DNA of 64,000 nt from Verrucomicrobiia bacterium (GTDB lineage: Bacteria > Verrucomicrobiota > Verrucomicrobiia > Verrucomicrobiales > DEV007), in the NCBI GenBank assembly GCA_030427505.1, contig JAUICH010000003.1, forward strand, positions 248,001-312,000, in the 5' to 3' direction. The translations under genes were made by a program, and so were the position numbers. Positions within the stretch are counted from its first letter, which is position 1, and every line of letters begins with the position of its first letter. The notes below the pieces were generated by a model that was not told where the DNA came from, made no database searches, and saw only the letters and a program-made list of their open reading frames with translations. Below are positions 12,219 to 13,831 of this stretch, one piece after another.

Positions 12219-12668
12219 ATGGAGGATCCGGAGTCCAAGCTTTTTGCCATTACCTATTCCAGCCGGCCCTCGGTCCGATTTGGCGAGACGGAGTTGGAGG
12301 CGCTTCTCCATCAAAGCCAGGAGAACAATGCCAGATTGGGAGTGACGGGTGCGCTTCTCTTCACGGGCCGGCAGTTTATTCAAGTCCTCGAAGGTCCGGA
12401 GGCCCAGGTCCGCGATCTTTATGTGAAGATCAAAAATGACAGCCGCCACCACAGTGTGGTTCTCCTCTTTGAAGATTACCCCGCCCAAAGAACTTTCCCT
12501 GATTGGGCAATGAGCTTTCGCACGCTGAACCCGGACACTCCGGGATTCCGGGGCACGACCTCTCCCCGCCAGCTCAAGGAGCTGTATTTCGCGCAACCGA
12601 ATGCTTCTCTGTGTCTTCTGAATTCCGCGGGCGAACAGGATGACAGCGGCCTTCCCCTGCCTTCCTAA
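12219..12668 (+). CDS. BLUF-domain blue-light sensor protein
   Basis: 149 aa; start ATG 12219 opens 10 residues before the first BLUF strand (KLFAITYSS). BLUF domains bind FAD and shift a hydrogen-bond network on blue light. All key residues are visible: Tyr13 (AITYSS), Asn37 (NNARLGVTGALL), Gln55 (RQFIQVLEGP), and Trp96/Met98 (FPDWAMSF). After the roughly 100-residue domain only a short tail of about 48 residues follows, so the signal must go to a partner. The next gene, 35 bp on, is a histidine kinase; co-transcription makes it the obvious partner (inference). Confidence 0.92.
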   Translation: MEDPESKLFAITYSSRPSVRFGETELEALLHQSQENNARLGVTGALLFTGRQFIQVLEGPEAQVRDLYVKIKNDSRHHSVVLLFEDYPAQRTFPDWAMSFRTLNPDTPGFRGTTSPRQLKELYFAQPNASLCLLNSAGEQDDSGLPLPS

Positions 12669-12703
12669 CTTATTGTCCCTTTTCCGGCTGGCGCGTCTCT
12701 GGC

Positions 12704-13831
12704 ATGAACTTTGAACTTGGAAAAGACTCTTTCAGCAGCCTCTTCCCCTTCTTTGTGGCGTTCGGCCCGGACTCGATCATCGAAGCCACCGGACCCAGCT
12801 TTCAGCGCCTGTTGGGCCACGACCCGGTGGGAGAGCCGCTGGACGGACTGTTCGCGTGCCGGACGCCTTCCGCCACACTGACGTGCGAATCGATTCGGGA
12901 CTATCCGGGCGAACTCTTTGTCCTGGACCTGAAAGCCAAACAAATTTCGTTCCGCGGCCAGATGTGCTGTATGGACCGCGGAGGGTGCTTTGCCGGAGCG
13001 CCGTGGATTCTCGATGAAAAAGACTTGGAACAGGCGGGGCTTGGCCTCGAGGACTTCGCGATCAACGATCCCATCGGCGAACTGTTCACTGCCTTTCGCG
13101 CCCAGAAAGCCGCGCTTCATCAGACCCACCAGCTCTCGGAAATGCTGAAAGAGCGAAACGAGCGCCTGGACATGTTTGCCGCCAGCCTCGCTCACGATAT
13201 CCGGAATCCACTCTCCGTCATCCAGACCGGAACCGAGTTCCTGCAAGGCAGCGATCTGGATCTGGACCTCCCGGAAAAAGTAATGAGCCTCATCAAGGCC
13301 ATCCACCAATCGAGCAGGAAGGCCAACGAGATCGTATCCGCACTGCTGCTGCTCGCGAACTCCAATCCGGGAGGCGTGGAAAAGGTCCCCACGAAAATGG
13401 AGGACCTGGTTCGGGACTGCATCCGCTCCTTTCAATCCGTCATCGAAGAAAAGAATGCCCAGATCACCGTGGAGTCACTGGAAGACTGCTCCACACACAC
13501 CCCCTGGGTTCAACGGATCTTTGACAACTATATCAGCAACGCTCTGAAGTATGGCGGAACGCCGCCCAATTTACGAATCCGGTCCGAAGCCCGGCGTACC
13601 CGTTTTGGCCCGGCACTGCGCTATTGGTTTGAAGACAACGGCCCCGGCATTCCCAGAGACCGTCAAGACGAGGTGTTTCGGGCCTTCAAACGGCTGGAGC
13701 CCGATCGCGCCGAGGGCACCGGTCTTGGACTCAGCATGGCCAAGCGGATCGCGGAATCCATGGACGGCTCAGTGGGCGTGGAAAGCGAGCCCGGCAAAGG
13801 TTCCCGCTTCTACCTGGAACTTCCCGCGTAG
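12704..13831 (+). CDS. Sensor histidine kinase with HNOBA-like N-terminal domain
   Basis: 375 aa, no transmembrane segment, so cytoplasmic. Residues 11-130 match the HNOBA (heme-NO-binding-associated, PAS-like) pattern: SSLFPFFVAFGPDSIIEATG, QRLLG, LFVLDLKAKQISFRGQM, FAGAPWILDEKDLEQAGLGL and DFAINDPIGELF. A coiled-coil linker (135-157) leads to HisKA with phosphoacceptor His164 (ASLAHDIRNPLSVIQ) and a HATPase domain with N box (NYISNALKYGG), DNGPGIP and GTGLGLSMAKRI. No H-NOX gene and no response regulator adjoin it; the BLUF gene 35 bp upstream is the likely sensory partner (inference). Confidence 0.88.
   Translation: MNFELGKDSFSSLFPFFVAFGPDSIIEATGPSFQRLLGHDPVGEPLDGLFACRTPSATLTCESIRDYPGELFVLDLKAKQISFRGQMCCMDRGGCFAGAPWILDEKDLEQAGLGLEDFAINDPIGELFTAFRAQKAALHQTHQLSEMLKERNERLDMFAASLAHDIRNPLSVIQTGTEFLQGSDLDLDLPEKVMSLIKAIHQSSRKANEIVSALLLLANSNPGGVEKVPTKMEDLVRDCIRSFQSVIEEKNAQITVESLEDCSTHTPWVQRIFDNYISNALKYGGTPPNLRIRSEARRTRFGPALRYWFEDNGPGIPRDRQDEVFRAFKRLEPDRAEGTGLGLSMAKRIAESMDGSVGVESEPGKGSRFYLELPA

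What the first reader, a model, noticed from the sequence alone, without database searches (positions are those of the whole stretch)
12219..13831. BLUF photoreceptor paired with an HNOBA-like histidine kinase
The BLUF gene has all key flavin-site residues and no output domain; 35 bp later comes a soluble histidine kinase whose N-terminal 120 residues match HNOBA, a PAS-like domain known as the partner of heme-NO/O2 (H-NOX) sensors. No H-NOX gene is nearby. The inference is that BLUF replaces H-NOX as the input, giving a blue-light-controlled kinase. I know of no described BLUF-HNOBA pair, though I cannot check the literature.
Basis: partly seen in the sequence, partly recalled or inferred. 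Interest (0 to 1): 0.65.

Follow-up and report, generated by a model that had tools for sequence, protein, structure and literature searches.

The report
Blue-light sensor beside rewired NO-type kinase
In an uncultured verrucomicrobial genome, a blue-light sensor gene sits where a nitric-oxide sensor gene normally sits, in front of a kinase that looks stitched together from two neighbouring genes of a nitric-oxide pathway, which suggests that evolution swapped gas sensing for light sensing.

Summary
Window 12219-12668(+) encodes a short BLUF protein with every flavin-site residue. After a 35-base gap, 12704-13831(+) encodes a soluble histidine kinase whose N-terminal ~155 residues are a true HNOBA domain (Pfam E 4.6e-14; fold match to human sGC beta-1 and to the Nostoc HNOBA structure).

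HNOBA kinases almost always follow an H-NOX gene: all 8 others in the family, and 26 of 32 in a wide genome scan. None of them has a BLUF neighbour. This genome has one H-NOX, but it is of the other subfamily and has its own kinase; in the family, that subfamily is never next to HNOBA.

Two results go beyond the finding. First, the kinase is a chimera. Its HNOBA half is sister to the first kinase, and its catalytic half (50% identity) to the second kinase, of one H-NOX/HNOBA-kinase/REC-kinase operon in a relative. Second, that relative also encodes a single BLUF-REC-kinase protein whose kinase is of the same small clade, independent support for BLUF control of this kinase type.

Best reading: a BLUF-controlled kinase derived from an NO relay. 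The exact pair is known from one genome only, and docking of BLUF on HNOBA is inferred. No response regulator was identified.

The parts
12219..12668 (+). Short BLUF photoreceptor, 149 aa (Y13, N37, Q55, W96, M98), no output domain
   Evidence: PF04940 E 1.8e-28; alignment to PixD and BlrP1; residue indices
12669..12703 (+). 35-nt intergenic gap; no terminator-like site called in it
12704..13831 (+). Soluble histidine kinase, 375 aa, HNOBA + signalling helix + HisKA/HATPase chimera
12704..13168 (+). HNOBA domain and start of signalling helix (residues 1-155); 38% identical to HNOBA of the H-NOX-linked kinase of G406
   Evidence: PF07701; 2p04/2p08; tree; alignment; fold
13139..13828 (+). Kinase core (residues 146-375), 50% identical to the REC-linked kinase behind the G406 HNOBA kinase; H164 in AHDIRNP; junction with HNOBA part at residues ~146-155
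13064..13066 (+). Codon of N121, where 50 of 51 other HNOBA domains have His

Best explanation
This is a two-gene blue-light two-component input unit. A PixD-like short BLUF protein is the sensor, and the co-transcribed HNOBA kinase is its output. The kinase arose from an H-NOX / HNOBA-kinase / REC-kinase operon of the sort still present in relative G406. The HNOBA domain and the start of the signalling helix of the first kinase were joined to the catalytic core of the second, most simply by an in-frame deletion, and a BLUF gene now occupies the place of the A-type H-NOX gene. Proposed working: light-driven rearrangement of the BLUF hydrogen-bond network changes how BLUF contacts the HNOBA dimer; this shifts the continuous helix (residues 123-182) leading into the DHp and alters autophosphorylation of H164; phosphate then goes to an unlinked response regulator. 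Shown here: gene anatomy, intact catalytic and flavin residues, chimerism, absence of the A-type H-NOX, and a BLUF-REC-kinase fusion with the same kinase clade in a relative. Inferred: co-transcription, physical contact, light control, direction of the response and the target regulator.
For: Adjacency on one strand with a 35-nt gap, as an isolated pair. BLUF and HNOBA each occur once in the genome, side by side. HNOBA normally follows an A-type H-NOX, which this genome lacks: its only H-NOX is V-type with its own kinase. The HNOBA half is sister to the G406 HNOBA (98*); the core is sister to the adjacent G406 REC-kinase (91, inside a 99* clade of 7), with 50% identity against 26% to the first kinase's own core. 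Relative G406 encodes BLUF-REC-HisKA-HATPase in one 535-aa protein whose core falls in that same clade. Among 66 BLUF loci fetched across the phylum, plus the window, the only same-strand BLUF-kinase links found were these two.
Against: The exact BLUF-HNOBA pair is seen in one genome only, and no other member of its genus is held. The G406 fusion shows BLUF working with this kinase class through a REC domain, not through HNOBA. The BLUF of the fusion and this BLUF are not clearly sisters. HNOBA kinases without any neighbouring sensor exist (L190, L198, L206, L208, L210, L212). No light assay and no response regulator.
Confidence: 0.58

Rival explanations
1. BLUF controls the kinase, but not through HNOBA. 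HNOBA is only an inherited dimerisation and linker module, and BLUF contacts the DHp or catalytic part, as its fused counterpart in G406 presumably does through REC.
For: BLUF-REC-kinase fusion in G406 lacks HNOBA; HNOBA is a known dimerisation module of sGC and of the Nostoc kinase (PMC2828450).
Against: The HNOBA core is well conserved in this protein (F14, P15, F16, G30, G85, P100, W101 kept), more than a bare spacer would need.
Confidence: 0.2
2. The pair is only co-transcribed or adjacent. BLUF acts on another target (as short BLUFs do) and the kinase senses something else or is constitutive.
For: Most BLUFs in this phylum are solo short proteins with no kinase neighbour; orphan HNOBA kinases exist; only one genome shows the pair.
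Against: The only other same-strand BLUF-kinase link found in the phylum is a fusion to a kinase of the same small clade; BLUF and HNOBA are both single-copy and adjacent.
Confidence: 0.17
3. The kinase still reports NO through the H-NOX at C51 acting in trans, and BLUF is incidental or a second input.
For: The genome has an intact H-NOX (PF07700 E 1.4e-41).
Against: That H-NOX is V/HnoX-type (6ocv E 1.5e-43, Alr2278 only 1.7e-10) and is followed by its own kinase. In the family 0 of 10 V-type H-NOX neighbour HNOBA, while 9 of 9 A-type do. Asn121 replaces a His kept in 50 of 51 HNOBA domains.
Confidence: 0.05

Closest known systems
H-NOX / HNOBA histidine kinase pairs (A-type, Alr2278-like H-NOX; Nostoc punctiforme kinase of 2p04/2p08)
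   Same: Stand-alone sensor gene directly before a soluble HNOBA-signalling helix-HisKA-HATPase kinase
   Different: The sensor is BLUF instead of H-NOX; the catalytic core is from a REC-linked kinase class; no receiver or Hpt tail
Soluble guanylate cyclase beta-1 (H-NOX - HNOBA - coiled coil - cyclase)
   Same: HNOBA fold followed by a signalling helix (model Z 16.5 to 8hbe)
   Different: Kinase output; sensor on a separate chain and of another fold
Short BLUF proteins acting through partners (PixD-PixE, BlsA, PapB-PapA; own knowledge)
   Same: Short BLUF, no fused output, presumed action by protein contact
   Different: Partner here is an HNOBA histidine kinase, a partner not reported in the papers searched
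LOV-histidine kinases and other photoreceptor kinases (PMC6798134)
   Same: Blue light to a soluble histidine kinase
   Different: LOV is fused in cis and of PAS fold; here a separate BLUF chain
BLUF-REC-histidine kinase of G406 (L094:6064-7671)
   Same: BLUF linked to a kinase core of the same clade
   Different: One chain with a receiver domain and no HNOBA
REC-kinases ('hybrid response regulators', e.g. Leptospira LvrB, 8vc9)
   Same: The catalytic core here descends from this layout in its family
   Different: The receiver domain is gone and HNOBA takes its place; no claim of close kinship to LvrB itself

Membership tests
BLUF photoreceptor (PF04940) | Profile match above cut-off | tested here: met
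   98.9 bits vs 25
BLUF photoreceptor (PF04940) | Photocycle residues Tyr, Asn, Gln (plus Trp/Met) | tested here: met
   Y13, N37, Q55, W96, M98
BLUF photoreceptor (PF04940) | Flavin binding and red shift on illumination | not testable with these tools
   needs protein
HNOBA domain (PF07701) | Profile match above cut-off and HNOBA fold | tested here: met
   52.9 bits vs 23.4; 2p08 Z 16.5, 8hbe Z 16.5
H-NOX/HNOBA kinase pair | A-type H-NOX gene adjacent | tested here: not met
   BLUF in its place; only V-type H-NOX in the genome
H-NOX/HNOBA kinase pair | Catalytic core of the HNOBA-kinase clade | tested here: not met
   Core in the REC-kinase clade, 99*
Histidine kinase of two-component systems | Phospho-acceptor His, N, G1, F, G2 boxes | tested here: met
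   H164; N box 275-283; 311-317; 328-333; 338-344
Histidine kinase of two-component systems | Cognate response regulator identified | tested here: inconclusive
   None among the neighbouring genes; flanks are a MOSC protein and accA. Unlinked regulators were not searched; many kinases have none linked
Light-regulated histidine kinase | Light-dependent autophosphorylation | not testable with these tools
   bench assay needed

The most novel reading that the evidence does not exclude
HNOBA is an interchangeable docking adaptor for stand-alone sensors. Here a light sensor was naturally swapped in for an NO sensor, while the HNOBA domain was grafted onto another kinase, shortening an NO phosphorelay to a one-step blue-light kinase. 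H-NOX (usual), possibly FIST/NosP-like proteins (seen beside HNOBA proteins in L100, L189, L222) and BLUF would all plug into the same domain.
Probability: 0.33. Interest if true: 0.75.

Novelty: new variant of a known kind. Interest (0 to 1): 0.52.

Why it matters
HNOBA is the middle domain of soluble guanylate cyclase, and how it passes a signal from H-NOX is not settled (own knowledge). A natural case in which a sensor of unrelated fold, switched on and off as easily as by light, replaces H-NOX would allow HNOBA signalling to be tested directly. It would also be a partner kind for short BLUF proteins that the searched papers do not report, and a natural template for light-controlled kinases built from two chains.

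Tried and rejected
- H-NOX in trans as the true input: rejected as the main reading on subfamily and gene context.
- Other BLUF-HNOBA pairs: none in phylum, class or family samples or in the GTDB contig scan. The first alignment (A1) was too diverse to scan with, so the scan used a four-sequence alignment and two peptide patterns and is not exhaustive.
- BLUF tree as proof of common origin with the G406 fusion: unresolved, with a long branch.
- Asn121 as a unique mark of lost H-NOX contact: not unique; one H-NOX-paired HNOBA (L204) also has Asn.
- Response regulator: none linked here, nor next to the related REC-kinases.
- Plasmid search with the whole kinase: the rows shown are generic kinases.
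- Literature: one paper holds both BLUF and HNOBA, a c-di-GMP review without such a pair in the passages read; three hold BLUF and H-NOX; none holds 'BLUF histidine kinase' or variants. The library is open-access only.

Full report
Observation. The window (G000:C43:248001-312000, 6.4 Mb genome, 96.5% complete) holds a BLUF gene at 12219-12668(+) and, 35 bases on, a kinase gene at 12704-13831(+). BLUF matches PF04940 at E 1.8e-28. The kinase matches HNOBA (E 4.6e-14), HisKA (8.6e-13) and HATPase_c (1.6e-21). Flavin-site residues Y13, N37, Q55, W96 and M98 are present. The catalytic motifs and H164 are intact. HNOBA is confirmed by sequence (2p04/2p08) and by fold: the model's HNOBA part is confident (pLDDT mostly 94-98) and aligns to sGC beta-1 8hbe (Z 16.5, 1.9 A, 129 residues) and 2p08 (Z 16.5, 1.8 A, 105 residues). 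In the model one helix (123-182) runs from HNOBA into the kinase; overall pTM is only 0.46, so relative domain placement is not informative.

Setting. The neighbours on both sides (a MOSC protein, a small protein with no Pfam match, accA) lie on the other strand, and no terminator was called between the two genes. BLUF and HNOBA each occur once in the genome. The organism belongs to Verrucomicrobiota: the family relative G406 is the record 'Verrucomicrobia bacterium isolate MAG-85' (L182 carries the same genes as L093).

What HNOBA kinases usually look like. In the family, all 8 other HNOBA genes recovered by the HNOBA search follow directly behind an H-NOX gene. In the phylum and class samples most do too. 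In the GTDB-wide scan 26 of 32 do. The six exceptions of that scan have no recognisable sensor gene next to them. L100 has no H-NOX but a FIST protein next door. No HNOBA other than the one in the window has a BLUF neighbour.

The genome's own H-NOX. It lies on C51 with a 700-aa kinase directly behind it (GAF-like region by eye, PAS, HisKA, HATPase) and regulator genes nearby. It is of the V/HnoX subfamily (6ocv E 1.5e-43; Alr2278 1.7e-10), whereas the HNOBA-linked H-NOX of G406 is of the Alr2278/sGC kind (E 4e-44). In the family the split is clean: 9 A-type H-NOX all neighbour HNOBA, 10 V-type never do (one A-type neighbour match, L268, is weak, and one V-type, L266, is a fragment). So the H-NOX kind that goes with HNOBA is missing here, within the limits of a 96.5% complete genome.

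The kinase is a chimera. Residues 4-155 align to the HNOBA kinase of G406 at 38% identity; residues 146-374 align to the next gene of the same operon, a REC-kinase, at 50%; the core is only 26% identical to the first kinase's own core. Trees agree: the HNOBA half is sister to G406 HNOBA (98*), and the core is sister to the G406 REC-kinase (91) within a seven-member clade (99*) of the same family. Every full-length member of that clade that was scanned, other than this one, carries a receiver domain. The simplest history is an in-frame deletion joining two neighbouring genes of an H-NOX/HNOBA-kinase/REC-kinase operon, with BLUF now in the H-NOX place. That history is inferred; no intermediate was found.

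Independent support for BLUF input. G406 also encodes one 535-aa protein BLUF(32-123)-REC(160-270)-HisKA-HATPase, and its core lies in the same seven-member clade. Among 66 BLUF loci fetched across the phylum (some overlapping), the only same-strand BLUF-kinase link was this fusion, beside the window's own pair. The BLUF tree does not show that the two BLUFs share one origin.

Mechanism. HNOBA is a dimerisation domain in sGC and in the Nostoc kinase (PMC2828450) and leads into a signalling helix. I propose that BLUF contacts the HNOBA dimer, and that light changes this contact and the helix register, hence autophosphorylation at H164. Contact, light control, direction and target are untested. 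Asn121 replaces a His found in 50 of 51 other HNOBA domains, compatible with a changed partner but not specific to it.

Literature. One open-access paper holds both BLUF and HNOBA, a c-di-GMP review that treats them in separate sections. BLUF proteins were counted as 64% short and 34% EAL-linked (PMC4844311). BLUF units in sensor kinases are mentioned as poorly characterised (PMC6798134). No paper found describes a BLUF-HNOBA pair; subscription papers were not searched.

Verdict. Observation confirmed; interpretation partly supported and sharpened. The pair is known from one genome, so functional linkage rests on gene context, on the missing A-type H-NOX and on the related fusion.

Noticed in passing
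L094:6064-7671 (G406:C122): Single protein BLUF-REC-HisKA-HATPase, an architecture not in the BLUF census read (PMC4844311).
   Followed up: yes
L149:5121-5852 (G406:C87): BLUF fused to a LuxR-type (GerE) helix-turn-helix, i.e. a possible one-component blue-light regulator.
   Followed up: partly
L155:497-1570 and L156:218-1492: BLUF-adenylate/guanylate cyclase fusions (photoactivated-cyclase-like) in two family members.
   Followed up: partly
L100:3361-7554, L189:2105-5300, L222:1-2546: FIST (NosP-like) genes next to HNOBA proteins, with or without H-NOX, hinting that HNOBA may serve several sensors.
   Followed up: partly
L093:7567-10727 (G406:C48): H-NOX / HNOBA-kinase / REC-kinase operon with no terminal response regulator; the REC-kinase resembles Leptospira LvrB in layout.
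   Followed up: yes
L004:5406-10339: V-type H-NOX, 700-aa kinase whose C-terminal stretch has no receiver match, REC-Hpt protein and NtrC-type regulator: a separate NO circuit of this genome.
   Followed up: partly
L210:6001-9567: HNOBA split over two open reading frames, possible frameshift in a Sphingobacteriia orphan HNOBA kinase.
   Followed up: no
L042:1333-2351 (G233:C61): Two BLUF domains encoded in tandem.
   Followed up: no
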